Assembly (NCBI GenBank): GCA_027919835.1
Contig: JANVFP010000007.1
Coordinates: 620,001-684,000 of the forward strand
Source of the DNA: Lentinula raphanica
Taxonomy: Eukaryota; Basidiomycota; Agaricomycetes; Agaricales; Omphalotaceae
Direction of reading: 5' to 3'
Length of the DNA: 64,000 nt
The first letter of the stretch is position 1. The number at the start of each line of letters is the position of its first letter. The notes beneath the pieces were generated by a model that was not told the DNA's origin, did no database searches, and saw nothing but the letters and a program-made list of their open reading frames with translations. The translations under genes and the position numbers were made by a program. Positions 15,217-64,000 of this stretch are shown in pieces.

Positions 15217-15223
15217 TATCAGC
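15217..15223. repeat. Left target duplication of element A (TATCAGC)
   Basis: TATCAGC at 15217-15223 is repeated at 18232-18238. One copy is needed to restore the transposase reading PIST. Confidence 0.9.
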
Positions 15224-18200
15224 CACCCATAGCTGTAGGAGCTTCGTGAAGTAGTCCAATAAGTCTCCAAGATTACTTTGCAAAGTAACCCGAGTGGCTC
15301 TCGAAGCTCAAAAAACCCTTTCAGGCAGGTCAGCAGGGCTCCGGGGGGTGCTTGGCTACTTAGTATATTTATTAATATTCAATAATTCTTTTAATATTTA
15401 ATAGGTATATTATAATAAACCTACTTCGCGAAGTGACTACGTTTACGACAATCATGAAATCAGGTAAATTAGGGTTACATCATTACGTCATTGATTTCCT
15501 TTTTGGGTTATGGTATTTTGAATAGAAAAATGCATATCATGACACTATTGATTTTGGAATGCTAAAAATCACAGATGAATCCAAAAATGGCTATAGGTAG
15601 GTACTGGCTACCTCAGGCACATCAAAATTGCCTAAAAAGGAAATTGGCCCAAAAATAGAACTTGATCTCATCAGGTAGCAAAAAATCTGAAAAAATCATA
15701 AAAAATACTTAAAAAATTCAGGGTCATCTCATTGGCCCTGAAAACACAAAATAAAAAAAAAATATGTGACAAGTGTAAAAATTTTTATCACTCCAAATCA
15801 TACCAGATCCTCTATACATTGAGTATATATGATGTACATGCTATTTTTAGCACCCCTAGTACACTCAGACACTCAGAATGGCTTATATCATTCAATATAT
15901 TCAGCACACTCAATGCTTATTATACTTAACACACTTAACAATGAAAAAACTCGGAATAGTAGTAATGTATATCATACTCAACATACTCAACAATGAAAAA
16001 CCTCAAAATAGTGTTCATGTGTATTATACTTAACACACTTAACACACTTAACAATGAAAAAACTCGGAATAGTAGTAATGTATATCATACTCAACACACT
16101 CAACAATGAAAAACCTCGAAACAGTGTTCATGTGTATTATACTTAACATACTCAACACACTTAACAATGAAAAAACTCAGAACAGTGCTCATGTGTGTTA
16201 CACTTAACACACTTCATCAATCAATATAACATACTTAACAATCAAAAACTTGGAGTAGTGTTATCACACATTATACTTAACACACTTCATCAATAAGTAT
16301 AACATACCTTCAATAGGACATTGTTATACTATGACACACTCATAACAACGAGTTTTGGGCCCTTATGGGCGCTTATTTGGGGTTTTTGAGTCAAAATTCA
16401 TTAATAGCACACTCAATAATTTTTGTGTGGGCTCTATATTGTGTCAGGATGTTGTCTATATCATATTCCTCTAGATATAATTCGGTGAACTCGAAAATAC
16501 AACCTGTGTGGCTAGCTATACTATAATCTTTTGTAATATAACAGTGTTTTATGTAAATGACAGTGCATACACCCATGTTATGAAGTCAAACTGCTGCTGG
16601 GTCATGAAAAGAGTCATTCTACAACCTATTTTATGCTAACTCTATGTGATACAGCCAAGAGGTTTGTAATGGGGGTCATTGAATATGACATCTATTGTTA
16701 CATGTAAGTGTAGACATCTATAGTGTACATGAAACATGTACATGTGTATCATAGAGTCCAACCTTTATGATAGCTATCTGAATCATGTACAAACACTGCC
16801 AGTAGACCGTAGGAGTGCTGTCCTGATGGACCAGCATCAGTATACTTGCATTACATGGACATATGCATTGGCATTTACATAAAACACTGTTATATCAGAA
16901 AAGATCATAGTATAGCTAGCCACACAGGTTGTATTTTTGAGTTCTCCGAATTATATCTAGAGGAATATGATATAGACAACATCCTGACACAATATAGAGC
17001 CCACACAAAAATTATTGAGTGTGCTATTAATGAATTTTGACTCAAAAACCCCAAATAAGCGCCCATAAGGGCCCAAAACTCGTTGTTATAAGTGTGTCAT
17101 AGTATAACAATGCCCTATTGAAGGTATGTTATACTTACTGATGAAGTGTGTTAAGTATAATGTGTGATAACACTACTCCGAGTTTTTGATTGTTAAGTAT
17201 GTTATATTGATTGATGAAATGTGTCAAGTGTGTTGAGTATATTAAGTATAATATATATGAACACTGTTCTGAGGGTTTTCATTGTTAAGTGCATTATGTG
17301 TGTTGAGTATAACACACATGAACACTGTTTCGAGGTTTTCATTGTTGAGTGTGTTGGGTATGAAATAAATTACTACTATTCCGAGTTTTTTCATTGTTAA
17401 GTGTGTTATGTGTGTTAAGTATAATACACATGAACACTGTTTCGAGGTTTTTCATTGTTGAGTGTGTTGAGTATGATATACATTACTACTATTCCGAGTT
17501 TTTTCATTGTTAAGTGTGTTAAGTATAATAAGCATTGAGTGTGCTGGATATATTGAATGATATAAGCCATTCTGAGTGTCTGAGTGTACTAGGGGTGCTA
17601 AAAATAGCATGTACATCATATATACTGATCTGGTATGATTTGGAGTGATAAAAATTTTTACACTTGTTGCGTATTTTTTTTTATTTCGCGTTACCAGGGC
17701 CAATGAGGTGACCCTGAATTTTTTGAGTATTTTCATGATTTTCTCAGGTTTTTTGCTACCTGATGAGATCAAGTTCTATTTTTGGACCAATTTCCTTTTT
17801 AGGCAATTTTGATGTGCCTGAGGTAGCCAGTACCTACCTATAGCCATTTTTAGATTCATCTGTGATTTTCAGCATCCCAAAATCAATGATGTCATAACAT
17901 GCATTTTTCTATTCAAAAATACCATAACCCAAAAAGGAAATCAATGACGTAATGATGTAACCCTAATTACCTGATTTCATGATTGTCGTAAACGTAGTCA
18001 CTTTGCAAAGTGCAGCATAGCTTCGCAAAGTAGATTTATTATAATATACCTATTGAAATAATAAAAGAATTATTGAATATTAACAAATATACTAAATAGC
18101 CGAGCACCCCCCGGAGCCCTACTGGCCTGCCCGAAAGGGTTTTTTGAGCTTCAAGAGCCACTCGGGTTACTTTGCGAAGTAATCTTGGTGACTTATCGGA

Positions 18201-18231
18201 CTACTTCGCGAAGCTCTTACAGCTTCAGCTG
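15224..18231. mobile_element. Element A: 3.0-kb palindromic non-autonomous KDZ-type element
   Basis: The whole element is one giant imperfect palindrome. The left arm (15224 to about 16570) is mirrored by the right arm (about 16860 to 18231), with a ~290-bp loop. Outer ends begin CACCCATAGCTGTAGGAG and, on the other strand, CAGCTGAAGCTGTAAGAG, followed by CTTCGCGAAG-type words and GGCTCTCGAAGCTC; these match the KDZ element ends at 54351 and 63687. The arms are AT-rich and hold runs of TTAACACACTTAACA words. Mirrored 61- to 64-codon open frames near 16391 and 16846 are products of the symmetry. It is flanked by the 7-bp duplication TATCAGC and sits in exon 1 of the MULE-like transposase. Confidence 0.9.
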
Positions 18232-18494
18232 TATCAGCACCATCAACGCGTATCGAGACTCGGTAAGTGACTTGTGCACAGTCTGGAGACCAAACTTTAC
18301 TCAACATGCGTCGAAACAGCTGTTCAGTCCTACGTTCATCGAGCAGAATCCTGCTTTGTTCCTCCAAACTGATTGGATCAATGTCTCTGGTCTGCGCGAC
18401 TTTGTTTTGGCTAGAACACGCGAAGGTACGGATATATAGTGCTTTTCAACCAGTAACAATGTTTTCTCACTGTCTTACCCCATAAGCTCATGCC

Positions 18495-19589: not shown

Positions 19590-22500
19590 GGATGCGGCAG
19601 AGGCTATCAAGAAGGAGAAGATGGTAAGTGCAGCCTCTTGATACAAGGACATGTGTGAGACTGATAAGAACACTAGTCTAAGCATGGCTCGCCTATGACA
19701 GATATTGACTGGGACATAAAGAGTGTCTCAGAACAGGACCTCAGTGATGAGGATACATCGGACATCGAGATAGTTTCGGTGCACGAGGATGAGGATTCGG
19801 AGGGGAAATGGATGGCATCAGATACGGTATGGCTTGATGAAGGCATCACTTCTGAAGTCCTCAATCAGCAGACACGAATCAACCGGAACGTGACTGTGGA
19901 TCGTGTCGAGCGTATACTTGGTGGTTTCCCCTCATACTATCCTGTCCCTCGTGTCTCGACTGCATACCTGTTAGATGCCAGCGATGAAGAGTATGATGGG
20001 AAGCAAATCCATAAGCTTATTGCAGACAAGGTATGGGCTAGCTCAATATCATTGGTCAATGAATTTATATCTCGTCGACAGGAACAAGAATCTTGGCTCG
20101 GCTCATCTGGTCTAAAAGACTCAAAACCTGGAATCTCACTGTTCACTGGTAACAAAGTCAAGTGCATCCGAAAACGACAGATGTGTTCTGGCGTCTATGC
20201 CTGTGACAAGCTGGACCCGAGCTACCTCAATGTACAGCGCCATGAGCTTGATCCCGATGCTTTGAAAGAGCTAATTCAAACTGAAATTCAATCTCGCATC
20301 ACTGAGACTGACAACATTGATAAGAAAACCCTAGTGTATGTTTTCGAGCTCTCTAGCGCATTTCAAAACATTCACAATATCTGTTTTTAGATTTTGGAAC
20401 GTTATCCATTCCTCCCATTGCAAAGCGGTCGACTCAGATGGGGCTCCATGCAATGGTAGGCCAATCATGAAAGCCCTTAAGGTACGTCTATTCTAGAGCT
20501 TGGTCTTGGATTGTAGACTAATTCTTGTGGTCTCTGGTGTAGCGAAAACGAGACGGATTTAGCTACTTCATTGCATGCAGCAATTGGAGTCAAGATTGGT
20601 CATCTGACCATCAAAGCTTTTCGCTCGTACCTGGTGTCAGCAAAGTAAGCCTTTCGAAACTTTTTCATGATGTCGCACTCTCTGGAATCTCTGCGGTTTC
20701 AACTTGCACGCGTATACTACCTGCTCGCATTGGTGCAAGGGTGAAAATCTGCGGTACGCCGTTCTAGCATGCTCATGTGCGTGGTTCAATGATATGACAT
20801 TTTCCAAAATTCAACAGGCTATCCACACAACGCAAACGGCGAACAAAGCAAGATTGTGAAGATTAAGTGTGGTGCTCAGCGCAGTATCTTCTACCCTGAG
20901 GATACATCCATTCGTCAAGCCTGCATTATCTATAAGATCAAGCCACATGAACATCCAGTACTTCCTGCATCAAAGGCAACACTCGAGGTTCAAGACCTTT
21001 TCCGTCGGTGTGTTGTCGCCTCTGGCCTAGTTGGTCATACGGTCCAGACCGTTGAAGCTGGTGAGTGACCGTCATTGACTCAGTCATTGCTTGAATCATA
21101 CATCGAAGTGTCTGACTATTGTAATATTGAAGCTTCTAGTACAAATCTCCTTCTAGAGGGAAAGTCAACTTCCCTCATTCATCCATCCCTTGTCAATCGG
21201 CGGCAGAGGGAGAAAATCATGCGGGAAGAGAAGACGAAAAAATTTCCTCAAGGTCTTGGCATAGCAGGTATGTTCCCGCCAATGCATGGCTGCCTACTAT
21301 GTTCATCATTATATCTTCAGGTGTCTGGGCATTGTACGAACAACACTCTCTCAAACCTGAGTCTGATCGTTACATCCAGCGTATTACAAGCTCTTTGACT
21401 GGTGGTACGCTGATCTTCACACTCAAATCACGCTTACTCCACCTTGTCCATTCTGCGTCGGCTTTCGAAATCGATGGCACTTTCAAGCGTGTCATTGGTG
21501 AATTTGATGAGGTTGAAATTTCTATATGGCATGATGGTGTCAGCCGAGGTCAGTTGGTGTAAAATTTGACCCTTTGCCTTCTGATTTCCTTGTTTAGCAG
21601 TTACCATTGGTCGAGTGTACATCACGCGAAAGGATGTCGAGACGTATAAGTGCCTCTTCGATCATCTGCAAGAACTTACAGAACATCTTACGAAAAAGCC
21701 ATTGCGGTTCAAAGCACTATCACGAAATGGAAATTTGCTTGCATTAGGTACAGATATGGAGCTCGCAATGATTCAAGGTATGTTTGATCTGCTACAATAT
21801 GTTTCTCTACCTCAGGACTTGATCCTCATAGGTGCTGGCAAGTCATTCCTGAAAACAAATGAACCCGACTACAGCAATATCCATACTTCTGATGCTGAAG
21901 AGATAGTGAAATACTTCTCTCGCATCTGCCTGGTACATTGTAAACGGTATGGGATCTATCTGCTCAATGCCAGTTCATGGTAAGATAATCGGAGTTGTCC
22001 TCTAGTGGTATACAGTGCTTCGACACCCCGGAACTGAAATCTGAATATGAGCGGATCAAGAATTTCATGTATCTATTCTCCGATGCTGAGATCGATGAAT
22101 TCACCTCATGGGTCAATGGGTTGAAGAACACCGAGAAGACCAAGGCAATCAAAGGTTCGTGGTTATCCTTCGATTGTTGGCTACATGTTTATGTATTCAT
22201 GTTTAGCATGGTGGAAAGATAAGCTCAAGCCATGTATACTTTCTGGTATAATTCGATGTCGCTCGAAAATGACAGATACGGCTTGGGCGATCACACCAAC
22301 AATGACAAATATCAATGAGACACAGCACAAATTCACAAATGAACATACTCGAACAAAGACTTCGATTGTTGAGGCAATCTTACTGTATGTGTTCTGTCCG
22401 TCCGCTCAAGTAGATGAGTAATGTTATTCATTTCAGTGCATATGATCTTGATACGAAAGTCGAGAACGAGATATATAGCTCGCTCGAGCATGGTATTCTC

Positions 22501-29727: not shown

Positions 29728-31273
29728 CACCTCATAATCCCAATTAACGGAGAATATAATCATAGCCAATGGGGGGGTATTGGCAATGGTAATCGTTATG
29801 CTGTTTCAGTATCTCACAGGTGCGCTATAAAAGCTGAATATCTACCAACCAACTTAGCACAATAAGTATATTTTCGGGTAGTTGGAAAGTAGTTCCTGAA
29901 CGTCGGGCTAGTATTGCAACTGGCATTGTTCAGATTGCATCATAATATGATCCCACTGCGCTCCCCGCCTCTCTCCATCTATTATCCCGCCCAAATCCCG
30001 CCACTGCAATTCAGATACCGTGCCAGTGACCCATGCTCTGTGTAACTGGATGTCACCGTTGACGGAGGTATGCTTGCATAATTATTCTAACTACTTGAAG
30101 ATATCCTGTGCTCAACGGTAGGGCCCGCCGGTGAGGCAGTAGGCCAGAGCTTCAAGGTTTGTACTACTTCTAGCATTTTATTGACACCAGAAACTGGCGC
30201 AAGTAGGCAGCCTTGCGCCTGTAGTGAGGATGGACACCTAGATGATAGTGAGGTCAACGTTGAACAATCTGACATCAACATTTGGAATTTTGAACGAACT
30301 TTTGGGCCAAATTGTGAGGGTGATACTATCGATTAGTATCTGTCAAGGATGCAGAGTCGAAGGCTCGTGTTGGTGGACTGTGTCTTACATGATGGCTTAA
30401 TGTGATCCAAGTCGGATGTCTTGATGATCGCAGTGCAAAAGACAGGAGTGTTAAGAGGAGCTGCAGGTTATAACTTGGGTGATGTACTTATTTATCACTG
30501 TCGTGCCTGCGAGGACACTTCAGACTATATGCGGCGAGAATCTGGCAGACTCTAAAATCTTGCATGATGGAGTACTTAGTCGCGTCAAGTACGTTGGTCA
30601 TTAATCGTGAAGGACCTGATAACTTGACCCAGCTGAACAGCAAAGATGCATCACTGAACGAGACTCTTCCAAATATAATTCTGACAAACTGAGGGCATCG
30701 ATACAAGGACCACATATGACTGTGACAATCATGATGTGGATTCACTGCATAGTACAGCAGATTGAAACAAACTTCATCATGATGTGCACCGAATGCAAAT
30801 AGTAGTTATCCTATGCAGCTTGCTCACCCACTGTATTGCAGTAAGTACTACATTTCTTCTACTCAAGATTGGTTTGTCTGTGGATGAACCGTTTGGTGAA
30901 ACCTTGGCATCTTCAACCTACAACGAGCAACACTATATTCACAACAGAGACACTGGACTACTTGTCAGTTCCAGCGGGAGAGGCTCCTTTTATGGGAGGC
31001 GCGCAATGATGTTCGGACTTATCCGGAGACGCGTGAACTTGTCTGAGAGCAGAGGGCGCTGCAGCGCATGATGTCGTTGATGAACTAATGAAGCTGAAGG
31101 CTGAAGGAGCACTCGGCCAAGGGCCGATCATTCACTTACTGTACTAAGTTGGTTGCTAAATATCCAGCTTTTATAGCGCACCTGTGAGATACTGAAACAG
31201 TATAACGGTTACCATTGCCAATACCCCCCCATTGACTATGATTACATTCTCCGTTATTTGGGATTATGAGGTG
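29728..31273. mobile_element. Element C: TIR element with 8-bp target duplication
   Basis: Inverted ends of about 150 bp begin CACCTCATAATCCCAA; the left copy runs through GGGGGGGTATTGGCAATGGT and GCGCTATAAAAGCTG, and the right copy mirrors it from 31273 back to about 31130. The 8 bases TGGGGTGT flank both sides (29720-29727 and 31274-31281). The 1546-bp body has no convincing gene. An 8-bp duplication with long TIRs fits a non-autonomous hAT or MULE type; I cannot choose. Confidence 0.85.
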
Positions 31274-34561: not shown

Positions 34562-35174
34562 TCGACCACCATCACCACACACTCTTTTGCAAAATGGCAC
34601 TATTTGTCTGCTCATAGCTCTCGGTTCGGAATAATCAGCTTCACGTAGTGTGGGATAATGGCGAGCGTAACATTGACTCGGATGGCAGTTGCTCTCCATG
34701 TACATCTGGTGCTCATTAATGGTCGTCCAATCATGGGGTCAGGAGTGTCAAGGATGTCAATGAGCAAGGATGAGATGACAGATTATAACGAGCTCATGAG
34801 ACAGTCATTTATTCAAGTATGTGAGCATTGGCAAAATTTTCATTCGCTTTATTGATGGTTTGACCCTCTAGGCTCTTACTATTAATACCAGTAGAGATCA
34901 TCGAATCTTCAATATACGCTCTCCGTACTCTCTGTGAATCGAATCAATATCCAAAACAGTGACTCGCCGAGAGAAGACGATATCGCTCAATGCTCCACAG
35001 CTTCTGTCTCTCCCTATTCAGGTCTGCAGTCTGGACCAGCGCAGGAGATGGAGTCGAGTACACCTAGATGTACATCTCTCTCCCACTCGTACTCTCTATA
35101 CTTATGCACCCCTCCTTCTGGCAATGAGCCCAACATGCAAGAAGGTGCAAGGTGCAAGTTAAATTCTGTTATTG
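34562..35174. other. No gene recognised
   Basis: Short + strand open frames (34658-34855; 34934 to the element B border) show no motif. The second may be an exon end cut by element B but cannot be supported further. Confidence 0.4.
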
Positions 35175-38100
35175 CACCCGTAGCTGTAGAAACTTCGCGA
35201 AGTAATCCGATAAGTTCCCACCACAGCTTCGCAAAGTAACAGGACTCGCTCTCGAAGCTTAAAAAACCCTTCCGGGTAGGCCAGTAGGGCTCCGGGGGGT
35301 ACTCGGCTATTTAGTATATTTAATAATATTTAATAATTCTTTTATTATTTAATAGATATATTATAATAAATCTACTTTGCGAAGCTGTACTGCACTTCGC
35401 GAAGTGACTACGTTTACGGCAATCATGAAATCAGGTAAATTAGGGTTAGATCATTACGTCATTGATTTCCTTTTTGGGTTATGATATTTTTGAATAGAAA
35501 AAAGCATAGAATGATATTATTGATCTTGAGATGCTAAAACATGACAGAGGAAACCAAAAATAGCTACAATGAGGTATTGGCTACCTCAGGCACATCAAAA
35601 TTGCCTAAAAAGGAAATTGGTCCAAAAATAGAACTTGATCTCATCAGATAGCAAAAAATCTGAAAAAATCATAAAAAATACTCAAAAAATTCAGGGTTGC
35701 CTCATTGGCCCTGAAAACGCAAAATAAAAAAAATACACGACAAGTGTAAAAAATGTTATCACTCCAAATCATACTAAATCTAGGTATATATGATGTACAT
35801 GCTATTTTTAGCATACCTAGTACCCTCAGACACTTAGAATGGCTTATATCATTCAATATATTCAGCACACTCAATGCTTATTAAACTTAACACACTTGTT
35901 AATGAAAAAACTCAGGACAGTAGTAATGTATATCATACTCAATACACTTAACACACTCAACAATGAAAAACCTCAAAACAGTGTTCATATGTGTTATATT
36001 TAAAACACATAATACACTTAACAATGAAAAGTCTTGGAACAATACTAATGTATATTATACTCAACATATTTAACACACTCAACAATGAAAACCCTAGAAA
36101 CAGTGTTCATGTGTGTTATACTTAAAACTCATCATACACTTAACAATGAAAAGTCTCGGAACAATACTAATGTATATCATGCTCAACACACTTAACACAC
36201 TCAACAATGAAAACCCTCAAAAAGTGTTCATGTGTGTTATACTTAAAACACATAATACACTTAACAATGAAAAGTCTCAGAGCAATACTAATGTATATCA
36301 TGCTCAACACACTTTACAATGAAAAAAGTCGGAACAGTGCTCATGTGTATTATACTTGATACACTTCATCAATCAATATAACACACTTCACAATCAAAAA
36401 CTTGAAGTAGTGTAATCACTCATTATACTTATCATACTGAACACACTTCATCAGTAAGAATAACATACCTTTAATAGGACATTGTTATACTATAACACAC
36501 ATATAACAACGAGTTTTGGGCGCTTATGGGCGCTTATTTGATGTTTTTGAGTCGAAATTCATTAATACCTCACTCAATTATTTTTGTGAGGACTTTCTGT
36601 TGTGTCAGGATGCTGTATACATCATACTCCCCTAGATACAATTCGGAGAACTCAAAATTACAGCCTGTAGGGATGGCTATATCATGATCTTTTATGATTT
36701 AACAGTGTTTTAGGTAAATGACAATACATATGTCCATGTATTGCATAGATACCAAAGCTGTCTCATGGGGAGAGCACTCCTACAGTCTACTAACAGTGTA
36801 TGAACATGATCCAGATACTCACCATGACCATTGGACTCTGTAATATACATCTACATATTTCATGTATATTGGTGATATGTATACTTGCATGTAACTACAG
36901 ATGTCATACTCGATGACTCCCATTGTAAGTCTCTTGGCTTTATGACACAGAGTAAGCATAGAATAGGTTGTAGGATGTCTCCTTTCATTGCCCAGAAGGA
37001 GTTTGACTTCATAACATGGATGTATGCACTGTGATTTACACAAAACAGTGTAAAATTATAAAAGATCATCATATATCCAGCTCTATAGGCTGTATTTTTT
37101 GGTTCTCCAAATTGTATCTAGGAAGGTATGATATAAACAACATTCTGACACAATATAAAGCCCACATAAAAAATTATTGAGTGTGTTATCAATGATTTTC
37201 GACTCAAAAACACCAAATAAGCGCCCATAAGCGCCCAAAACTCGTTGTTATATGTGTGTTATAGTATAACAATGTCCCATTATAGGTGTATTATACTTAC
37301 TGATGAAGTGTGTTCAGTATGATAAGTATAATGAGTGATTACACTACTCCAAGTTTATGATTGTGAAGTGTGTTATATTGATTGATGAAGTGTATTAAGT
37401 ATAACACACATGAGCACTGTTCCGAGTTTTTTCATTGTGAAGAGTGTGTTGAGTATGATATACATTAGTATTGTTCCGAGACTTTTCATTGTTAAGTGTA
37501 TTATGAGTTTTAAGTATAACACACATGAACACTGTTCTGGGGTTTTTCATTGTTGAGTGTGTTAAGTGTATTGAGTATAATATACATTACTACTGTTCTG
37601 AGTTTTTTTCATTGTCAAGTGTGTTAAGTTTAATAAATTGAATGATATAAGCCATTCTAAGTGTCTGAGGGTACTAGGTGTGCTAAAAATAGCATGTACA
37701 TCATATATACCCAGATTTAGTATGATTTGGAGTGATAACATTTTTTACACTTGTCGTGTATTTTTTTTTATTTTGCGTTTTCAGGGCCAACGAGGCAACC
37801 CTGAATTTTTTGAGTATTTTTTATGATTTTTTCAGATTTTTTGCTATCTGATGAGATCAAGTTCTATTTTTGGACCAATTTCCTTTTTAGGCAATTTTGA
37901 TGTGCCTGAGGTAGCCAATACCTCATTGTAGCTATTTTTGGTTTCCTCTGTCATGTTTTAGTACCTCAAGATCAATAATATCAATCTATGCTTTTTTCTA
38001 TTCAAAAATATCATAACCCAAAAAGGAAATCAATGACGTAATGATCTAACCCTAATTTACCTGATTTCATGATTGCCGTAAACGTAGTCACTTCGTGAAG

Positions 38101-38349
38101 TGCAGTACAGCTTCGCAAAGTAGATTTATTATAATATATCTATTAAATAATAAAAGAATTATTAAATATTATTAAATAATAAAAGAATTATTAAATAATA
38201 TTAAATATACTAAATAGCCGAGCACCCCCCGGAGCCCTACTGGCCTACCCGGAAGGGTTTGTTGAGCTTCGAGAGCGAGTCCTGTTACTTTGCAAAGCTG
38301 TGGTGGAGACTTATCGGACTACTTCGTGGAGTTTTTACAGCTTCAGCTG
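35175..38349. mobile_element. Element B: 3.2-kb palindromic non-autonomous KDZ-type element
   Basis: A second copy of the element A family. The left arm (35175 to about 36735) mirrors the right arm (about 37020 to 38349). Ends begin CACCCGTAGCTGTAGAAACT and, on the other strand, CAGCTGAAGCTGTAAAAACT. The perfect 7-bp duplication GTTATTG lies at 35168-35174 and 38350-38356. The central ~290 bases match the reverse complement of the element A loop, although the outer ends of A and B are in the same order. The small open frame seen in both arms of A is broken here. Confidence 0.9.
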
Positions 38350-38760
38350 GTTATTGTTTCCTCCCGTTCGTTTTCGCGTTCCTCTCCCACTCCTAACCTT
38401 CCTCGTTTTCTCAAATGCAGAAAGCGCCTGAAAACCCGTTGTCTTCTTCCAGATTACTGTTTATCCCAGGTGTGAGGCATGGATTCGAGTGGAACTTGAA
38501 GATTCCTTTCGGAGTCGGTTGAATGAATGGATTCAAGAGCTGCACGGTCACGGTGGATTTGCCGTAGCCAAGTAGAAGAGCTAATAACAAGTCGGTCGTT
38601 CTCTTCCTTGCTGTCACCCAAGGACCCTCTTTCTACTGCACTCAGTTTAAACATGTGGCCATCTATTTAACTTGAACCTGAATGATGGTCTCAGCGGCAC
38701 TGTACACGATGTCGAAAAGGTTTTCTCTAAAATCTAAACAACAAAATATAAAATATCCAT

Positions 38761-53458: not shown

Positions 53459-54350
53459 ATGGCCAGCACTACATACTGCACCCACTGTCTTAAGGGTTTC
53501 ACCACAATCCAGGGCTTGCGCTCACATCTGAGTCAAGCAGAGTTCTGTAAAGCGAAAGAAACAGCTAAAGCAAAAACAACTCAGTCTACCGAAACACCCC
53601 TACCCGCCGATCATAATTCTCCTCCAGTCTTTGACTACGACGCCGTTCCTACATCTGGCAATGAACCCGGACCCGGACCTGGACCTGGACCTGAACCTCT
53701 ACCTGAATCAACTCGTGGACGCAAGCGTCCAAGTGTCATGATCGAAGATTGTGATGAGGATACTGTCGATGTCCTAGAATCAATCTATCACACCAGAACA
53801 TACTACATACAGCACTATCCCGAGGGAGCAGGATGACCCATCCAGTCATGCGAACTCGAGTTTGAGAGATATCGCCGGGAGCAAATACAGGCAGGAGTCC
53901 AGCCGTGGTCACCATTCCAGTCTGAGGATGAATGGGAGCTTGCACGATGGCTGATGGAGTCAGGAGCAAGTCAAGGGAAGATTGATGAATTCTTGAAATT
54001 GAAGAAGGTTTGTACATAACAGTTTCATAGTGGAAGCCAATGCGTTGACAAGTATTTCAGATCCGGAATGATGTACAACCTCAATTCAGAAATAAATGGA
54101 ATTTCCTCCAGTATATCGACTCCCTTCCACGAGGCCCCGCATTCACATGCACACCTATGAAGATTGTTGGAGATTTGAAGGACGAAAGTAACGACTTCCT
54201 CACCGAAACCTTAGAGCTCTGGCACCGGGATCCTCTGGAATGTGTTGCCAAAATTCTGGCAAATCCTTTGTTCAAAGAGCACCAAGCGTATAGTCCAGAA
54301 CGAGTGTACCTAGAGCAGAAAGATGGTGTACCCTCAAATCGAGAGTATGG
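53459..54350 (+). pseudogene. Plavaka transposase, 5' part, interrupted by the KDZ element
   Basis: The N-terminal part of a Plavaka (CMC-type) transposase. A C2H2-like finger opens it (CTHCLKGFTTIQGLRSH), then an acidic/Pro linker with PGPGPGPGPEPLPES. A TGA at 53834-53836 follows YPEGAG; the same frame goes on as PIQSCELEFERYRREQIQAG, then SEDEWELARWLMESGASQG and, after an intron, NKWNFLQYIDSLPRGPAFTC, DFLTETLELWHRDPLECVAK and VYLEQKDGVPSNREYG. Here the KDZ element begins at 54351. The frame resumes at 63688. The nonsense codon suggests the gene was already decaying, unless a splice avoids it. Confidence 0.82.
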
Positions 54351-54594
54351 CAGCTGAAGCTGTAAAAACTCCGCGAAGTAAACCGGTAAGTCTCGAGTAC
54401 AGCTTCGCGAAGTAACCCGAGTCGCTTTCGAAGCTCTAAAAAACTTTTGGTCCTGGTTCTCCTCGTGGGAATCTTCGGTATGGCAGCTCGATTTTTGGAT
54501 TTTGATCTTCGGCAAGCTGTTTTCGGCACAACGGCACACTTCCCAACCTTGTTTCTCGGCGCTTATTCCTTTTTTTTCTTACCACTGCTTTACC

Positions 54595-57500
54595 ATGGCC
54601 TCTGATGACGGTGCGGATCGAGCGTCCCTCCCTTCCCACAGCTCTTCTACCGTCAATTCGACTTCGAATCCTAAACGAAAGCCCTCTCGTTCCAAACGTA
54701 CTTCTAAATCGAAAGCTTCGAAAACCTCCACACTTCCGAATGCCTCTTCTTCGTCATCCACGAATCGTGAATCTGGTACAACGCCTGCCAATCCGGAATC
54801 TCAAAACGAAGAGAATGACGACAACGATGAGGAGGCTCCGCGGCGACGCGGTCACAAAGGGAACTTTCACGGTGCTAGGTTGAAGTTTCTAGAAGCATCC
54901 TTGCTGGAATACGTCAAAGCGAAACCCAGAACGCCTTGTTTGGTCAGGATATGCTCTGAGTGGTTCGAGAAGTGGCCGTGGCATGACAAGGATAAGCAAC
55001 CGGAACAATTCGACGCGCTCGACTCTCCAGATGCAGATATATCCGCCGACGCTCGGGCTGAATTGATTGAGGAAAGGAAGAAGGTTCAGGAAGCGATTCA
55101 AGTCGCCGGCAAAGGTGTAAGTGATCATACATAAGGTCATAGTCATTCATTAATAGTATATGGACTGAACAGCAAATTGAACGATGGTTTTATCGGAACG
55201 CGAAGAAAGCAAGCACCTCCGTTCCTCTGCAGTCAACCCCTTTGGCTCCACTCCTTCGAAAGGCCCTCGGATTCGCTGGAGGAGCTCCGCGTCGTGCAAT
55301 CCTATATAAATTTTGGATGAAGCAACCAGAAAACCAGGCGAGGGTTCAAGAGGCAGTACAGGCTCGTCTCACCGAAGGACGGGTCGAGAGGGCGATGCTT
55401 CTGAAGCTTAGGTGCGACGTTGCCGAGTCGTTATTTGAGGATGAACCAGAGGACGTCAAGCAAGAGATCGAGGAACGCGTTAACGAGATCTATCAGCAGC
55501 AAATGGAGGTGTTCAAGAGGATTACCACAGGAGAAACGGTTACGTTGGAGGAATTAGGTGAAGATGGAAACGCCGAACAATTGCGGGAAGTGTGAGTGCA
55601 TATGTACTTCTGATGATGTATGTATCGCTAACGACGCTCTTTCAGATGTCGGGAATCGTTAACGAAATTCTTACAACCTCTGTTGGATCTGCTTCGTCTG
55701 TATACCGGCTTGAAGTTTTGTTTGCTGGCTGGTGCTCCCCCGCCAACTGACGATGACGATTTTTTTCTTCTTACGTGCGTTTCTATATCTCTTGCTATTT
55801 TGACATCTCACTGAACATTTCCTCCTTTTAGAATCAACTCCGGCGAATGTACAGGCGTAAATCCTCAAACGTTCCAAAATTGGCACAACGATTATTTCAC
55901 TAAGAATGTAATGGCGCTCTTCATGCTTTTCTTGTGTAACCAGAATCCAAGTACGTCTCCTTCGTCTTTCTGCGAATCCTCAGCGACTCAATGTATTCAT
56001 AGAGGACCTCCTTGGTGAACCTGGCCTTATCCACCCTGACACCGCCGGTTCGGGTACGACTCCAACTCCTGGGAATTCGATTGATGACCCATCCCTTATT
56101 CGCATGCCCGAGGAACAACCTGCCCCAACCGATACCACCACCTCTAAGAAACGACGGCGCAGAACGACAAAGAACAGAAAGCGGGCGAGGACGAAGGATA
56201 CGGAGAAGGATTCTGAGGACGAGGAGAGCGGCGAGGATGAGTTGACTTTCAAAGATCAGGATGGAAACACGGTCCTTCTTAGTGACATGAAAGGCCGTAT
56301 CATCGAGACGAGGGATACCGACGTTGCTACCCAGCACTTCGAGGCCGAATCCACACCCGAACCAAATCAACCGCTCCCCGAAGTTCTCAAAGAACACCTT
56401 GCCACTATGCTCACGGAATCTCGTCGGGACATCATCGGTATGCTCAATTCGCAGCCTGAAATCGTTCAGAAGCACAACATCAAAGTTCTCACCAGGAAAG
56501 CTGACGTGTGGAAAGCAGCTCAACAAGTCCGATCTCCGTCGCCTATTCATAATACTGACTCTCAAATTGGATCCGAAGCTTCGGGTCTCCAGGTTCCCTC
56601 GTCTACGACTTCTCCGCGTACGACTTCTCTGCCTACGATTTCTCGTGCTCCTGCTCTGGGTTCTGTCCGTTCTCGATGTGGTTCTGTACCTCTAGGCGAT
56701 ATATTCCAGTCTATTGATAACATATTCCAACTAGATGATCATGCAAACCGTCTCGCCTCTTCCATATCTACGAGGACTGTAAATATCCCGGTCCGATTTA
56801 GCTCTGTTCCCACTCAATTACCTGCTGACAGTGGGAACCTGGACTGGCTATCCACTAATTCCGCTAATTCTAAGATACCGTCGCAGCCGATGGTGACCCA
56901 GTCCAATACATCGGAGGACCCCAATTCTGACAATTCACCCCGCTCTCGACCTAAGCCAAAACCCTTACCTCGGCGCGCCAGGGATAGTTCGAACGAAACA
57001 CCCGATTCTGTCGGTCTCCCTAACACGAATCCGTCGAATGAGCCACTGAGTTCTGCGTCAGCCGGTCAAACTCAAACGCCGGGAATCCAGACTGACCTAA
57101 GTGACTGTCCAAATTGGCTTACCCGAGCGATTGCAGCATTGGGCGGTCTAGAACAGGACATCGAATGGAATCAAACTCTCTCCGCACTGGTGACGTTAGA
57201 GCGCTCATACGATTTTCAGGATCCGAATGGCAAGGTAAGTATCTCTATTGCTTGAATGTTACCGAATGTATATTGATAACGATGATATATTCTCAGGCGG
57301 CTTCCTTCAGCGCAGCAAAAGGCGTCCGTCCGCAGTTAGTCGAGTGGTATTTCAAGAATCGAAAGAACGTCGAGGCGACCCTGAAGCATGAATTCGATGG
57401 CTTGACGACAGAGAAATTAGCTCGGGCCCTGGGTATGTGGTGGTCGGTCATCAATCCTGAGTGGCGCGAAAGGGATAACGCAAATCGGATCGTGCCAAAA

Positions 57501-57821
57501 GGACAAGGTGAAGGGAGTTGGGTTGGCATGCACAGGCCGGGGCAATGTGGTATGATCACAGTTCTATTGTGCGTTCGCTGGTGGTACCTCAGGGTCAAGG
57601 ATGACAAGGAGCAGATGGAGGAATGTCTGATGTTGTTGTCTGATGTTCAGGCCGTGATTGAGGATATGGCTTATGAGCGCGGGTAAGTACCTTCATTGTT
57701 TTCTGAAAACGACGCTCATTACATATCTCTCAGAGCATATGACGGACGTCTCAAACGCAAAGCCCCTGCGTCTATCGCTTCCAATAACCCAAGGCCTACT
57801 CGACGAACCCGGGTAAAGTAA
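54595..57821 (+). CDS. KDZ element accessory gene 1, function unknown
   Basis: Seven exons join in phase (54595-55116, 55173-55591, 55646-55774, 55832-55950, 56003-57234, 57297-57682, 57734-57821) to give a 964-residue protein. The head is Ser/Lys-rich and disordered. Then come a helical part (RLKFLEASLLEYVKAKPRTP, WFEKWPWHDKD) and QIERWFYRNAKKAS, KALGFAGGAPRRAILYKFWM. A basic nuclear-localisation-type run follows (KKRRRRTTKNRKRARTKD). The long Ser/Pro region is disordered. The end is more conserved-looking (VEWYFKNRKNVEATLKHEFD, ALGMWWSVINPEWRERDN, GQCGMITVLLCVRWWYLRVK) with a basic tail. I see no enzyme motif. Its place inside the element, with the same orientation as the transposase and no breaks, suggests it serves the element, perhaps as a DNA-binding partner; that is inference. 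Confidence 0.8.
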
Positions 57822-58091
57822 ACCTGCTTTTCTTTGACTCCATCACCACGTCTTGCTATGGACCACAAACAGCTTTCTATCGCGTTCTCGTAGTTCGTAT
57901 ATACATATACATCGATACAGTGCTTGCTTATCTGGCTCAATAATAAATATAGCCCATTGATCCTCATTGATAAGTCATTGATAAGATCCGTTCGGACCGA
58001 GTGTGATGTAATAAATAATGTGGGAGTCCAGAAAACTGCAGCTCTTATCGATCAGAACACGCCTCACCAGCACCTCTCAACTTTCGCTCTC

Positions 58092-59116
58092 ATGTCCATG
58101 GAGGCTTTCACGCATGAAGGGTCTTGTACGCCCAAGTACTATCCCGATAGCATTCCAGGACTCGTACAAGCTCAGAGAGCACATGAGTACTATGTGATCA
58201 CCGACGGATCTTTTGCTGGTATCTACAAATATTGGTAAATTTTGGATAGAAATTTCTCGATTCATTTTGTTCACCTAGCTACAGGAACTTGGCTAAAGAT
58301 CGCGCAAATCGTTCGGGAAAGACTGCTCATGGAGTCGCTAGTTTTGAGGCAGCTTGCAATCTTTGGAGTTGGACTTGCAAGGAATACCATAAACACGATA
58401 ACCGAGATGTCATGGGTTTCTCTGCTCCGTTGTTACTGAAGGGCATCTCTGCTCCGCCGATGCTCTCAAAGACCTCGCAAGACTCTAGCTCTATTACTGA
58501 CGATGCTAATACCGATAATTCATCCGACGATAATAATCTACCTGCGGTTGATAAACATTCCTACGATGCCAAGCTCAATGACTTGAACAAATACTCCAAG
58601 CCTAACCCGATCGCGTTTAGCACGAAATCTGGCTTTCCGAAGTCATCTGCATCGAAGTTCACTTTCTCACCACCGCCCACACTATCGACTGAGAATTTAT
58701 CCGCTGCTTTGAAGGCGAAGGGAAAGTCTTCCCGTTCTCGTTCTCAGAGTCCCACGAAAGCATCTGCCAAGAATCCGAGTAAACCGCCGACAAACGATAT
58801 CGATTCGATCTCTGCTCAGCTGTCCAAGCAGTCTATTAGAAAATCCTCGACAGCTGGAAAAGCAAGTTCGAGCCGAGCAGAAAGTCAGTCGAAGCCACAG
58901 GGTTTATACGTCGTTAAATGGGAAGGCTCATACGAGCTACATTCCGACTTGTGAGTTTGGTTCTCTCTATATCAGTCATCTACGTATTTCTAACTCATAT
59001 GTAGCCAATCAGCGAAAGACTCGTTCGAGCAGGCCTTACTCTTGCAGAATGAAGTAACAATGCGATTTTCTCCTTCGTGGGATGAAGCGATCGCGTTCGC
59101 TATGAAGGAAAACTGA
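58092..59116 (+). CDS. KDZ element accessory gene 2, RNase H1 N-domain-like
   Basis: Three exons encode a protein of about 300 residues. Near the start, HEYYVITDGSFAGIYKYW joined to NLAKDRANRSGKTAHG and ASFEAACNLW resembles the RNase H1 N-terminal (viroplasmin-like) domain, a small fold that binds RNA-DNA hybrids or dsRNA: the order YYVI-DG-GIY-W-A…F…A matches. A disordered Ser/Pro/Lys middle follows (KGKSSRSRSQSPTKASAKN). The end reads GLYVVKWEGSYELHSDL and WDEAIAFAMKEN, which could be a second, degenerate copy of the same fold. No RNase H catalytic domain is present. The start at 58092 was taken as the first ATG before the domain; the frame is open further upstream. Confidence 0.65.
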
Positions 59117-59426
59117 TATTGTATACATACTGCAGCTTGCCCTTTACTATTTTCCTTTCGCTCTGCTCACGATCTGTTAACAAGTCTTGCTTTGCTACTA
59201 CTGCCCGTTGAATGTCTCATACTGCATACTGCTATAGTCACAATTTCGTAACAATGTCACACTGTCACCTCTTCGTTTACTGCCAACGCGTGAAAAACCC
59301 TGGATAAACCTTCATCAAAGCTTCGCGATGTAGGTTGACAAATATCGTCAGCTGGACAACACAAGGTAGACCCACGCCACGCCGCGTGTGTACAGCTTGC
59401 TTTCTGACCTCTTTCTTCACTGATTC

Positions 59427-62400
59427 ATGGCGTCGTCTTCCAAAGGTAGAGCCTCGAAAAAAAATCAGGGAACCACTATCCATCATCTGAGGCTCTCAGA
59501 CGTCTTCAACTCTCAACGAAATCAGACTCAAATTCGCTCAGAAACTCTTAACGCGAACGGTCAAGTCGTCCAGACACAAATTCCTGCAGAAATTCCATCC
59601 CCTCTCAAAAAGAAACGACGTATCATCACGACTGGAAATCCCGCTTCGGAACAGCGACTGAACGACTTACTCCAGTTCGCTCTCGTGAACGGCGAGCATC
59701 TTCCCACTGTCGAGGTCGACGACTCCACCAAATTAACGCCCGAATCTCTCGACCACCACTTGAATGAATTCAACAAACGTCAGCGTCGATATGCAGCATC
59801 TGTGTGTACCTTATATTTTTCTCATATATTTCATGTGCTAATTTCCATAGGAAGGACAGGCCATTCCTGGAATGGGTACCATACCAAAGCGAATATCTCA
59901 CAGAATTGATAAGGGACGAAGGGAGAGGAGACAGCCCTCTTGAACAATGTTGGAAGTGTGGAGGAGATCAAGTCCCGTTGTATCGTTGTATCTCTGGTTG
60001 TTTTTCTAGTGGTTTGGTGTGTGAAGAGTGCTGTAGACTCGAACATTTGGACAGGCCGCTGGACTTGATCGAGGTACGCTGCGTCTAGAGTTCCTTTATC
60101 ATCTATATACTGACATATCATCGGGTTCTAGAAGTGGAATGGCTCGTATTTTGAACGTGTATGGCTTCAGCAATTAGGTGTATCTGTCCATTTTGGACAC
60201 GCTTTTGAATCTATCTGTCCAAGTCCTCGTATCATCAAGGAATTCACTGTAATCCACACGAATGGAATTCATCGCGTAACCGGCGTTTTTTGCAATTGCA
60301 TCAATAGATCTGTCGCAGGTGAATGGCGGCAACAACTGCTTCGAAGGCGTTGGTTTCCCGCTACACACCTTCAGCCCGAGACTGCCGCGACGTTTGAGGT
60401 CCTCAATCACTTCCATGTTCTAACGCTTCAAGGAAAAGTCACGACATATGACTATTACGCAGGTCTTGAAAAGCTTTATGACAATGTCGGGACCGCAAAG
60501 AAGATCGTAAGTCGCTGCTTATATATTTTGAATGTGTTTACTCATATCGTTTGGAAGGACCGGTACAAAGCTTTCTCAAGAATGATTAGGGAATGGCGGG
60601 GCTTGAAGATGCTCAAACGAGGCGGGAGAGGAAACGACGCCACCAAGGACCCAGGCGATACACATCCAGGCGAGCTGGCCATCGAGTGTATCGCCTGTCC
60701 TCGACCAGACGAGAATCTGCCAAGTGGTTGGGAAAATGAACCTGCACAAACAAGGTGAGTTTGTCATGTCCGAATTAGAGACTGAACTCAGAACTGACCA
60801 TTGACTTAGATTCAAGTATTGGATTTATCTTGCCGAAGACGCCTGCTTTCGACTCAAACGTCGTCTTGTCTCATCCATAGAGGCTGACCCTGGTATCGGG
60901 ACGGGCTCGGCCTACTTCGTCGAAGACACAGCTTTCCGAAAGTACATCGCGCATTGCAACGATCAAACTGAGGTAAGTACAACACACGCACTGGTTTGAC
61001 CTTCCTAATTCATTATAGATGAGTACTTGCACGGGTCTCTCGGCAGTCGATCACGCAAACACAAAGTTTTCCAGAGGTTACGCTACCACTGGTGTTGGTC
61101 TCGCGGTTTGTGCTCGACATGAGCTAGTACAAAAGAACGGCGTTGTAGATTTACAGAAGGGTGAACGGTGAGTGACTCTTCGCTCTTGTGTTTTGTGTTG
61201 AAACTGAAAAATTTACAGGTATTGCAACATGGACTACTCGTTTGGCTCCATTCTCAAAGGAATCGACCCTCGAATCACTATCGTTCAATCCTACGACATC
61301 GCATGCCAATGGTCGAAAAATTTATATCAACGCATGAAAGACTTACCTTCGCAAGTCGCAGTCTCGCTCTCTGAACGCCAGATTTATTTTGCCATCCCAA
61401 AACTTCACATTCACGGACATAATCTTTCCTGTCAACTCTCGTTCTCTCTCAACTGGCTGTGGGGTGTGGGTAGAACCGATGGGGAGGGTGTGGAGCGCAA
61501 TTGGGCACACATGGGCCCCGTTGCAACCAGTACAAGGGATATGGGACCTGGCAACCGTCATGAAGTCCTAGATGACCACTTCGGTCATTGGAATTGGCGT
61601 GCGATATGTCGACTAGGTACGTGTCTTTTTTTTCATTTGACGCCGTTCAATTACTAACCTCTTGTGTAGGAGAACTTCTTTCAAAACGTTACGACGAAGC
61701 ACTCGAAGAACGGGATATACACGGCAAAGCTCTAGATCAGTTCCGAGCAGAGCGTCCCGATGATGCTGACCAATGGGAGGAGATGATCACTGCATGGGAG
61801 GTGGAGCTCATCAAGTCACCGAAGGAACGAAAAGCTGTGAATCCCTATGAATCGTCTAAGTCCGGTAAGAAAATTTACTCTTTGCTTTTTTTCTGCTGCT
61901 TATCCTTGGTCGTAGGGCTGTCGGAACATCAAGTGCGTCTCGCCCTTGCAAGAGATGAAGAGGTCGAAGCTGCCGCTGGTGTAGCAAGTCTCCACGATGT
62001 GGGGCCTTCGGCCTTCATTTCTCAGATGATAGATGTTGAGGATTCTATGTAAGTTTTCTGTCTTTCTTTTGTTCATCTATTCAAAATTATCACAGGCGCT
62101 CTGTCAAGCTGGAACTTGCTAGCAGGAAATCTGAGACCGCCCTGCAGCAAACGAACGCCATCCAACGGCGTACAAAACTTGTTCGATCCATTGCCAAAAT
62201 CCGGTCATTACAAGCCGTCTATATGCCCGCTGCGATTCAACGAGTGTCAGACAACGAAATTGGTGCGGACGTCAATGCCGAAGACATTCCATTGATTTTC
62301 CCATCGGATCTCTCGGAGTCGGAAAGAGTTACAGGTTGTCGCGCCGGACTATTGCTCATTGAACAAAAGCTTCGCGAGAGTCAGCTCTCTACTTCCCTGG

Positions 62401-63386
62401 ATAGGTTACGGAATAATCTCCACATTAAATCGCGCCTTCTCACTTATCGAAACACAAACGTCGTACATCAAGCTCGTGTGACCAAATCTCAAGCACTCTT
62501 GGCACGAACCCAGCGGCAAATCGACTTATCCGCAAATCGTTATCGAACCGCGTGGAGGGCTTTGGCGAAAATTGTGGGCGGCGAGAAAAATGTTGCTTGG
62601 CATTACCTTCACGACAGGGACGTATGTATGATGCGGGAAGAACCTCCCCAGGGTAATCTGAGGAAGAGAATTGGGAAACGCCGACGGGAGGAGGAGCAAG
62701 ATGAACAGGAACGGGAATGGCAACAAGAACAAGAACGTATCAATGCCCAGATCTTGGAACTTCAGGGAACTGAACAGGGCCGACAGATGTCAGAGCTCCA
62801 GCGGCTTCGCGCCGCTTGCGGGGAAGGAAAACGAAGGTTATCGTGGATATGGATGCCATGCGGTAACGGGGAGCTCGAGAACGAAGATATTCTAGAAGAC
62901 GGTAAGTTGCTTAACTGAAATATCCGGTATCCAGTACTAACAATGGTTTAAATAGGTATTCGGGTCGAATTCTGCAAAGCATATGCTCGCGCCAAACGGT
63001 GGGAAGAGGAAGTAGTTCTGATCGAAGAGGAAATGCGCCGATGTATAGTGTCGCTCGAAGCGCGCGCGCAGGTATGGGACGAACGAAAGAATTTCGAAGG
63101 ACCACGAGCCGAACGGATGGACAATATTCAACTAGAGGGCATCGCAGCGTATGCCGCTAGCCAGGCCGATGTCTATCGACGCCTCAAGACTCGCTTTACA
63201 ACATTATGGCAAGCTGCAGCAATCAACCGTAAAAGAGTAGCGGAACGGGGGAATAGCTATGAAGGGATCAATGACGACGATGTCAGGGACGAGGGCAATG
63301 AGCAGGCAGAGGACGAGGATGAGGAGGAGGTGGAGGAGGAGGAATTTGATGAGGACATACCTGGGATCGATGAGTTTGATGATTGA
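59427..63386 (+). CDS. KDZ transposase with CxC2 cysteine cluster
   Basis: This is a Kyakuja-Dileera-Zisupton transposase in about a dozen exons. After a basic head (LKKKRRIITTG) comes DRPFLEWVPYQSEYLTELIR and the CxC2 cluster: CWKCGGDQVPLYRCISGCF, CEECCRLEHLDRPL, and RVTGVFCNCINRS. The catalytic domain reads LSAVDHANTKFSRGYATTGV (first D), IVQSYDIACQWSKNLYQRM (second D), KLHIHGHNLSCQLSFSLNW and GRTDGEGVERNWAHMGPVA (E), followed by a DDHFGHWNWR end. The C-terminal third is a long charged coiled coil (KRRREEEQDEQEREWQQEQE) and an acidic tail ending GIDEFDD. All three expected acidic residues are present and I saw no stop or frameshift, so it may be active. It would excise and insert this element and any element with the same ends, such as A and B. 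Confidence 0.9.
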
Positions 63387-63687
63387 TTGTAGGTTCGCGA
63401 AGTAGATCGACTCAAGTACATACAGCTTCGCGAAGAAGCCCGTAAATCAAATTTACTTTGTACCACCGGCACAAGACAATGCCGATTGATGCCGTGGAGA
63501 TGGCAAAAAGTTGTAAGCAAGCCGAAAATTGGCTCCCCGGGGTGTTTCCCAATTGGGAAGTCCCTCGAAGCGCCGGTAGGGCTGGGCAATATGGCTTTTT
63601 AAAGCTTCGAAAGCGACTCGGGTTACTTCGCGAAGCTGTACTCGGAATTTATCGAAGTACTTCGCGAAGTTTCTACAGCTACGGGTG

Positions 63688-64000
63688 AGTATGGCGAGAT
63701 GTGGACGTGTGACTGGTGGTGGGAAACGCAGGTAAGGGCCAGCAGATAGAAGATAAAGTTAGAACTCACATTTTTGGTAGGAGCAGCTTCCTGAAGGTGC
63801 GACTGTGGCGCCAGTCATCATCGCATCTGATGAAACCCAGTTATCCACGTTCAGCGGTAACAAGAAGGCATGGCCCGTATACTTAACTATCGGGAACATA
63901 GCGAAGGCTGAGCGTCGGAAGCCCTCATCACGAGCATGGATTCTCCTTGGTTATATCCCTATCTCCCAGCTCGAGTGTTACTCAGAAGATCACCGCTCTG
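63688..64000 (+). pseudogene. Plavaka transposase, continuation after the KDZ insertion
   Basis: Directly after the right end of the KDZ element the frame reads YGEMWTCDWWWETQ (overlapping the target duplication), then an intron and EQLPEGATVAPVIIASDETQ, LSTFSGNKKAWPVYLTIGNI and SSRAWILLGYIPISQLECY. These are characteristic Plavaka transposase blocks, including ASDxTQLSxFSG. The gene runs off the right edge of the window. Confidence 0.88.

What the first reader, a model, noticed from the sequence alone, without database searches (positions are those of the whole stretch)
54351..63687. One KDZ end-family shared by a coding element and two giant palindromes
The KDZ element and elements A and B have matching ends: CAGCTGAAGCTGTAAAA-type on one side, CACCCGTAGCTGTAGAA-type on the other, then CTTCGCGAAG words. 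All are flanked by perfect 7-bp duplications (AGTATGG, TATCAGC, GTTATTG). This links a coding KDZ transposase to large non-coding elements it can probably move, and gives a 7-bp duplication, where Zisupton was described with 8 bp as I recall it.
Basis: partly seen in the sequence, partly recalled or inferred. Interest (0 to 1): 0.9.

Follow-up and report, generated by a model that had tools for sequence, protein, structure and literature searches.

The report
Giant palindromes riding KDZ transposon ends
Two 3-kilobase palindromes in a likely Lentinula mushroom genome share their ends and 7-base target duplications with gene-carrying KDZ jumping elements, belong to two families with practically identical copies at different sites, and are likely moved by KDZ enzymes, each family probably by a different KDZ lineage.

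Summary
A (15224-18231), B (35175-38349) and the KDZ element (54351-63687) have matching ends (about 94 bp) and exact 7-bp duplications. Elsewhere in the genome too: 37 of 64 end pairs read carry an exact 7-bp duplication; no other length was seen. The KDZ element has an open 1148-aa transposase model (CxC2 + KDZ) and interrupts a Plavaka gene; a relative of that gene lacks the insert. Four insertions have empty sites, three at 100% identity. B has a copy identical at all 3174 aligned bases with another duplication: recent movement.

Corrections. (1) The ends form two sub-types: 42 of 42 B-type pairs are nearest the window's KDZ element, 11 of 12 A-type pairs (A included) nearest another coding element, K5. 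So the window's KDZ is likely B's partner, not A's. (2) Seven bp with CA..TG ends is already printed for two Kyakuja families; this is no odd Zisupton.

Best reading: foldback-like, non-autonomous KDZ palindromes, likely moved in trans by two KDZ lineages. I found no print of such a partner for KDZ, but the kind is known elsewhere. Movement in trans was not shown; 26 of 62 tabled pairs lack a duplication, which I cannot fully explain.

The parts
15217..15223 (.). 7-bp target-site duplication TATCAGC, left of element A
15224..18231 (-). Element A: 3008-bp palindromic non-autonomous element, A-type ends (R tip at 15224, L tip at 18231)
   Evidence: no ORF of 150 aa or more lies wholly inside
18232..18238 (.). 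7-bp target-site duplication TATCAGC, right of element A
35168..35174 (.). 7-bp target-site duplication GTTATTG, left of element B
35175..38349 (-). Element B: 3175-bp palindromic non-autonomous element, B-type ends (R tip at 35175, L tip at 38349); copy at C7:989447-992622 identical at 3174 aligned bases (3 gap columns)
38350..38356 (.). 7-bp target-site duplication GTTATTG, right of element B
54344..54350 (.). 7-bp target-site duplication AGTATGG, left of the KDZ element
54351..54444 (+). L end of KDZ element K1, the part shared with the palindromes
54351..63687 (+). Coding KDZ element K1, 9337 bp
54595..57821 (+). Gene 1, predicted 7 exons, 964 aa, no Pfam match at E up to 0.1
58092..59116 (+). 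Gene 2, predicted 3 exons, 306 aa, weak match below cut-off to the RNase H1 N-terminal domain PF01693 (E 0.095)
59427..63386 (+). KDZ transposase gene, predicted 11 exons with GT-AG introns, 1148 aa open frame
60165..60491 (+). CxC2 cysteine cluster PF18803 (E 6.6e-38)
61217..61594 (+). C-terminal half of the KDZ transposase domain PF18758 (E 3.9e-40 for this exon)
63594..63687 (-). R end of KDZ element K1, the part shared with the palindromes
63688..63694 (.). 7-bp target-site duplication AGTATGG, right of the KDZ element
53500..54350 (+). Plavaka transposase gene interrupted by K1 (left part; the gene goes on from 63695)
   Evidence: PF18759, E 1.6e-17; uninterrupted relative at C19:798319-798614

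Best explanation
Elements A and B are foldback-like palindromic elements without a transposase gene that share their ends and 7-bp target duplications with coding KDZ elements and are likely moved in trans by KDZ transposases, B probably by the lineage of the window's own KDZ element (K1) and A probably by a second lineage (K5). Shown here: shared ends of about 94 bp with no other match to the coding elements K1 and K2; an exact 7-bp duplication in 37 of 64 end pairs read; an open 1148-aa transposase model in K1; empty sites for K1 and three palindromes; palindromes identical at every aligned base at different sites with different duplications; and two end sub-types, each nearest to a different coding lineage. 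Inferred: the transposase would bind the inner end region (positions 18 to about 94, with TTCGCGAA-like words), where L and R of one element mostly resemble each other more than the same end of another lineage, while the outer 17 bp keep the L and R tips distinct. It would then excise the element and insert it with a 7-bp stagger. The palindromes keep only those ends; their AT-rich arms, with tandem units of 52-122 bp, have no part in transposition that I could show.
For: Ends: in 34 palindromic or mixed elements held in full, every match to K1 or K2 lies within the outer 103 bp (first seen). Duplications: 35 of 62 pairs exactly 7, one 6 of 7, 26 none, plus K4 and K5 exactly 7. Coding elements read at both ends: K1, K2 (C20:552849-562237), K4 (C24:675311-684752), K5 (C39:383417-392994), 4 of 4 with 7 bp. 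Partner match: 42 of 42 B-type pairs nearest K1; 11 of 12 A-type nearest K5, the twelfth being a false 19-kb pair; at 14 diagnostic sites B-type letters are K1 712, K5 159, other 249, A-type K5 198, K1 109, other 1 (40 and 11 elements). Empty sites: K1 at 79% over 298 columns, with one diverged copy of the target; L024 (B-type) and L027 (A-type) at 100% across the whole join; L033 (B-type) at 100% at three loci. Recency: B and L035 identical at 3174 aligned bases (3 gap columns), L032 and L033 at 3097 (no gap), L045 and L046 99.97%, each pair with different duplications. Transposase: CxC2 and KDZ domains, open spliced frame.
Against: Movement in trans was not shown. K1's ends are 81-88% like those of 40 of the 42 B-type pairs, not identical. 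The partner match rests on two palindrome lineages, not on 53 independent events, and B-type has letters of neither partner at 249 of 1120 cells. 26 of 62 end pairs have good tips but no duplication. No empty site was found for A or B themselves, nor listed for L034, L043, L045 (40 of 45 candidates scored). In K2 the inner parts of L and R are only 61% alike, against the rule seen in the others. KDZ genes 69-77% like K1's catalytic part were not tested for ends, and in capped lists I saw only one copy with K1's own ends.
Confidence: 0.85

Rival explanations
1. The palindromes are moved by an unseen coding element with even closer ends (lost, in another strain, or among the KDZ genes not end-tested), and K1 and K5 are only cousins of the real source.
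For: Ends of K1 and B-type palindromes are 81-88% alike in 40 of 42 pairs, while some palindromes are identical to each other. About 110 KDZ-domain places (my hand count of the list, typed) exist in this genome and most were not end-tested. Related transposases are listed from further L. raphanica contigs.
Against: K1 is the nearest of the coding lineages read (medians at the R end: K1 82%, K2 74%, K3 67-69%) and its frame is open. This rival changes the source copy, not the mechanism.
Confidence: 0.3
2. The palindromes are immobile repeats spread by segmental duplication or ectopic recombination, and the shared ends are ancient remnants.
For: 26 of 62 end pairs lack a duplication; some loci show inverted duplications, in two cases with flank (L011, L013, L020).
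Against: 35 of 62 pairs carry exact 7-bp duplications of differing sequence; empty sites at 100% identity; identical copies in different targets.
Confidence: 0.03
3. The palindromes are assembly artefacts (fold-back reads).
For: C7 seems to begin inside a palindrome; inverted duplications that include flank exist. That palindromes are prone to such errors is general knowledge.
Against: Arms differ by about 14% with distinct L and R tips, the same arm differences recur across B-type copies, and copies have target duplications.
Confidence: 0.02

Closest known systems
Kyakuja (KDZ group) DNA transposons of Agaricomycetes, PMC12730594 (passages read)
   Same: 7-bp target duplications and 5'-CA..TG-3' termini (stated there for two Laccaria families), KDZ transposase, Agaricomycetes.
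   Different: Those two families are said to have no terminal inverted repeats and carry a TET/JBP gene; here L and R ends are imperfect inverted repeats of about 94 bp and no TET/JBP domain was found in the K1 proteins. No palindromic partner was mentioned in the passages read.
Cryptococcus KDZ1, KDZ2 and KDZ3, PMC12810828 (passages read)
   Same: KDZ transposase with cysteine cluster, about 9-11 kb, inverted repeats; shown active.
   Different: CxC1 rather than CxC2, TIRs of 139-241 bp, 8-bp (KDZ1) or 4-8-bp (KDZ2, KDZ3) duplications.
Galileo/Newton/Kepler and Foldback-like elements of Drosophila (P superfamily), PMC2775673 and PMC4168063 (passages read)
   Same: Long inverted repeats, non-autonomous subfamilies with near-identical terminal sequence, mostly 7-bp duplications, exchanged duplications after ectopic recombination.
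   Different: Other transposase superfamily; Galileo has a target consensus (GTANTAC), here no strong motif was seen in 35 targets.
Nonautonomous DNA elements assigned by TIR and TSD in Marasmius oreades, PMC8290104 (passages read)
   Same: Nonautonomous elements of a mushroom assigned to autonomous families by TIR and TSD; KDZ abundant.
   Different: In most cases under 1 kb; no giant palindromes in the passages read.
KDZ elements of Pleurotus ostreatus, PMC7641404 (passages read)
   Same: All intact KDZ transposons there are preceded by a CxC2 cluster, as in K1.
   Different: No duplication length or palindromic partner in the passages read.

Membership tests
KDZ transposon (coding element K1) | KDZ transposase domain PF18758 | tested here: met
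   E 3.9e-40 on the catalytic exon
KDZ transposon (coding element K1) | KDZ-associated cysteine cluster | tested here: met
   CxC2 PF18803, E 6.6e-38
Kyakuja | 7-bp target duplication | tested here: met
   37 of 64 pairs exact, no other length
Kyakuja | 5'-CA..TG-3' termini | tested here: met
   55 of 55 elements aligned begin with CA at both tips (three odd pairs left out there; tips were found with patterns that include CA, so this leans towards yes)
Kyakuja | No terminal inverted repeats (as stated for two Laccaria families) | tested here: not met
   L and R ends 87%, 87% and 90% identical beyond the tip in K1, K4 and K5; only 61% in K2
Kyakuja | Transposase groups with Kyakuja in a KDZ tree | not testable with these tools
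   No named Kyakuja, Dileera and Zisupton reference proteins at hand
Zisupton / Dileera | 8-bp target duplication | tested here: not met
   0 of 64 pairs
Foldback-type non-autonomous element (A, B) | Inverted repeats filling most of the element, with internal tandem repeats | tested here: met
   91-92% palindrome coverage; tandem units chiefly of 52-122 bp
Non-autonomous partner of KDZ (A, B) | Ends and duplication length of the autonomous element, no transposase gene | tested here: met
Non-autonomous partner of KDZ (A, B) | Moved in trans by the KDZ transposase | not testable with these tools
   Needs an excision or transposition assay

The most novel reading that the evidence does not exclude
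KDZ transposases drive two co-diverging lineages of giant hairpin elements, whose palindromic form is kept up by arm-to-arm homogenisation; because copies in either orientation can pair, and because even a palindrome with two L ends carries a 7-bp duplication, these elements act as rearrangement engines (inversions and alternative-end transposition) in the mushroom genome.
Probability: 0.25. Interest if true: 0.7.

Novelty: new variant of a known kind. Interest (0 to 1): 0.5.

Why it matters
KDZ elements are abundant in mushrooms yet little studied. This gives them a non-autonomous, foldback-like partner with precise ends, recent copies and two matched coding lineages, so end recognition by KDZ transposases could be tested with small constructs. 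It also points to a possible source of chromosome rearrangements comparable to Galileo in Drosophila.

Tried and rejected
Eight-bp duplication: the K1 flanks also match over 8 bp (GAGTATGG) if the last G of the R end is counted out of the element (seen by eye); with tips fixed as in the other copies only 7 fits. Palindromes as deletion derivatives of KDZ: rejected, only the ends match K1 and K2. A target motif: none strong in 35 targets. Simple reciprocal exchange for the pairs lacking a duplication: only two mate pairs among 120 orphan tips against 0.44 expected by chance (one tip, L150, was read at a wrong place through a slip of mine). One might be an inversion (C7:717 and C7:25500, inverted mates); the other faces inwards over 15 kb (C1:583318 and C1:598578), as a tandem duplication or an alternative-end event would; the second end of the first element was not found where I looked. 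An empty site for A and B: none. Rows dropped: one pair (L092/L093) had no facing tips; L086/L087, L088/L089 and L022 were left out; the 6 L-L and R-R pairs were left out. Tips studied are the 100 listed of 143 R and of 375 L, fewest mismatches first, so worn copies are under-sampled; 65 of those 200 tips had no fetched partner, of which 60 were read singly.
Full report
Host. The window is part of contig C7 (1,616,403 bp) of a 49.06-Mb genome. Proteins named Lentinula raphanica lie on contigs of exactly 1616403, 838391, 1076856, 1876084 and 2145657 bp, the lengths of C7, C23, C20, C4 and C1. The host is therefore very likely Lentinula raphanica; this is an inference from lengths.

The three elements. 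A and B are palindromes of 3008 and 3175 bp with tandem units chiefly of 52-122 bp in the arms; no ORF of 150 aa or more lies wholly inside either. The KDZ element K1 (9337 bp) has three predicted genes. The transposase model has 11 exons with GT-AG introns and an open frame of 1148 aa, with CxC2 and KDZ domains. The exon borders were chosen by eye. No TET/JBP domain was matched in the K1 proteins.

Copies in the genome. The R tip with up to two mismatches occurs 143 times, the L tip 375 times, against 7 and 16 for reversed controls. Pairing the 200 listed tips gave many pairs of 3.0-3.4 kb. I tabled 62 pairs read at both tips: 35 have an exact 7-bp duplication, one has 6 of 7, 26 have none, and no other length occurs. 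Two more coding elements, K4 and K5, have exact 7-bp duplications, giving 37 of 64. A 7-bp match has a chance of about 1 in 16,000 per pair. One of four L-L pairs and neither of two R-R pairs carried a duplication.

Coding partners. Both ends were read for K1, K2 (C20:552849-562237), K4 (C24:675311-684752) and K5 (C39:383417-392994), all with 7-bp duplications. K2 has relatives at C17:270931 (99.6% over 6.9 kb) and C33:155054 (99.3% over 2.7 kb) and an identical R end at C17:310385. K3 (C20:93122, C23:748618) was read at the R end only, which is at most 77% like that of any palindrome. All these were sought from KDZ genes outward, so a coding element of another kind with these ends could have been missed; the insides of two end pairs of 11.7 and 11.9 kb (C7:1079781, C22:886547) were not read. 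In 34 palindromic or mixed elements, every match to K1 or K2 lies in the outer 103 bp.

Two sub-types. Palindromes with L tip ..TAAAA (B-type) are nearest K1 in 42 of 42 pairs; those with ..TAAGA (A-type, with the window's A) are nearest K5 in 11 of 12, the exception being a false 19-kb pair (K1, K2, K4 and K5 compared). At 14 sites where K1 and K5 differ and each has the same letter at both ends, B-type letters are 712 K1, 159 K5 and 249 other; A-type letters are 109 K1, 198 K5 and 1 other. The match is clear but partial: the palindromes also have letters of their own. Since each palindrome type descends from few founders, this amounts to two matched lineages rather than 53 independent events. 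Beyond the outer 17 bp, L and R of one element are more alike (87-96% in K1, K4, K5, A, B, L028 and L045) than the same end of another lineage (73-84%); K2, at 61%, is an exception. The outer 17 bp stay L- or R-specific in the 55 elements aligned, though tips were found with patterns of those very letters. I read the inner part as the transposase-binding region; that is an inference.

Mobility. K1 sits in a Plavaka transposase gene. A relative at C19:798319-798614 runs through the junction at 79% with no insert and one, diverged, copy of the target. Palindromes L024 (B-type) and L027 (A-type) have empty sites at 100% across the whole join in repeated sequence (the L027 target also has nearby partial repeats), and L033 (B-type) at 100% at three loci. 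No empty site was found for A or B, nor listed for L034, L043 and L045 (40 of 45 candidates scored); L025, L026, L028 and L029 stayed unresolved because repeats filled the list (40 of 80 scored). B matches L035 at all 3174 aligned bases (3 gap columns), L032 matches L033 at all 3097 (no gap), and L045 and L046 are 99.97% alike, each pair with different duplications; A's closer of the two A-type copies compared is 97.1% (L021). So both families moved recently.

Arms. In a tree of 28 arms (6 A-type and 8 B-type elements), all A-type arms group together (support 1.000); the B-type L arms split from all the rest (0.997) and the B-type R arms group (0.940); in A-type L045 and L046 the L and R arms are sisters (0.983), but in A, L021, L027 and L037 they do not pair so cleanly. 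So arms resemble each other more within a family than the same arm does between families. That fits homogenisation between arms or repeated renewal of the palindrome; I cannot tell which.

Pairs without duplications. They are nearly all-or-none (0-4 of 7 matching, or 7 of 7, with one 6 of 7), which argues against slow decay. Among 120 orphan tips, two mate pairs were found against 0.44 expected, both within one contig: C7:717 and C7:25500 as inverted mates, as expected for an inversion by recombination (the pattern described for Galileo, PMC2775673, passages read), and C1:583318 and C1:598578 facing each other over 15 kb. Assembly error stays possible.

Known or new. Two Kyakuja families with 7-bp duplications and CA..TG ends are in print (PMC12730594, passages read); Cryptococcus KDZ elements have 8-bp or 4-8-bp duplications (PMC12810828, passages read). 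The paper searches, of which I saw listings and the passages cited, showed no foldback-like or giant palindromic KDZ partner; the library lacks most subscription journals. Foldback-like partners are known for the P superfamily (PMC4168063, passages read). I therefore call this a new variant of a known kind.

Noticed in passing
L025 (C1:1790212-1793102): A palindrome with two L ends (no R end) carries an exact 7-bp duplication (ATAGATG), which hints that an R end is not strictly needed.
   Followed up: partly
L011, L013, L020 (C20:391614-399322, C32:532817-541073, C1:598378-604607): Large inverted duplications of palindromes at 97-99.7% identity, in L011 and L013 including about 200 bp of flank: real rearrangements or assembly fold-backs.
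   Followed up: partly
C7:717 and C7:25500; C1:583318 and C1:598578: Orphan tips whose 7-bp flanks match as mates within one contig, as after an inversion and after a tandem duplication or alternative-end transposition.
   Followed up: partly
L014 (C33:154854-162599): A K2-like KDZ element breaks off exactly where an R-R palindrome begins, with no duplication at that palindrome.
   Followed up: no
L023 (C1:1715131-1718984): The flanks of this palindrome read like palindrome arm repeats, so it seems to sit inside another palindrome (read by eye from the letters).
   Followed up: no
C7:1079781-1091472 and C22:886547-898429: Two end pairs of 11.7 and 11.9 kb, the first with a 6-of-7 flank match, have no KDZ domain among the places listed; their insides were not read.
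   Followed up: no
window 19320-19600: A short element with inverted ends (..ATATTTTCATCTCTAGAGT.. and its complement) lies in the gene-like sequence next to element A (seen by eye).
   Followed up: no
window 29728-31273: Another inverted-repeat pair (150-bp arms, 91% complementary, 1246 bp apart), with no tip of this end-family there.
   Followed up: no
G000, whole genome: About 110 KDZ-domain places were counted by hand from the list (more not listed); L-type tips (375) outnumber R-type tips (143), so a further family with L-like ends may exist.
   Followed up: no
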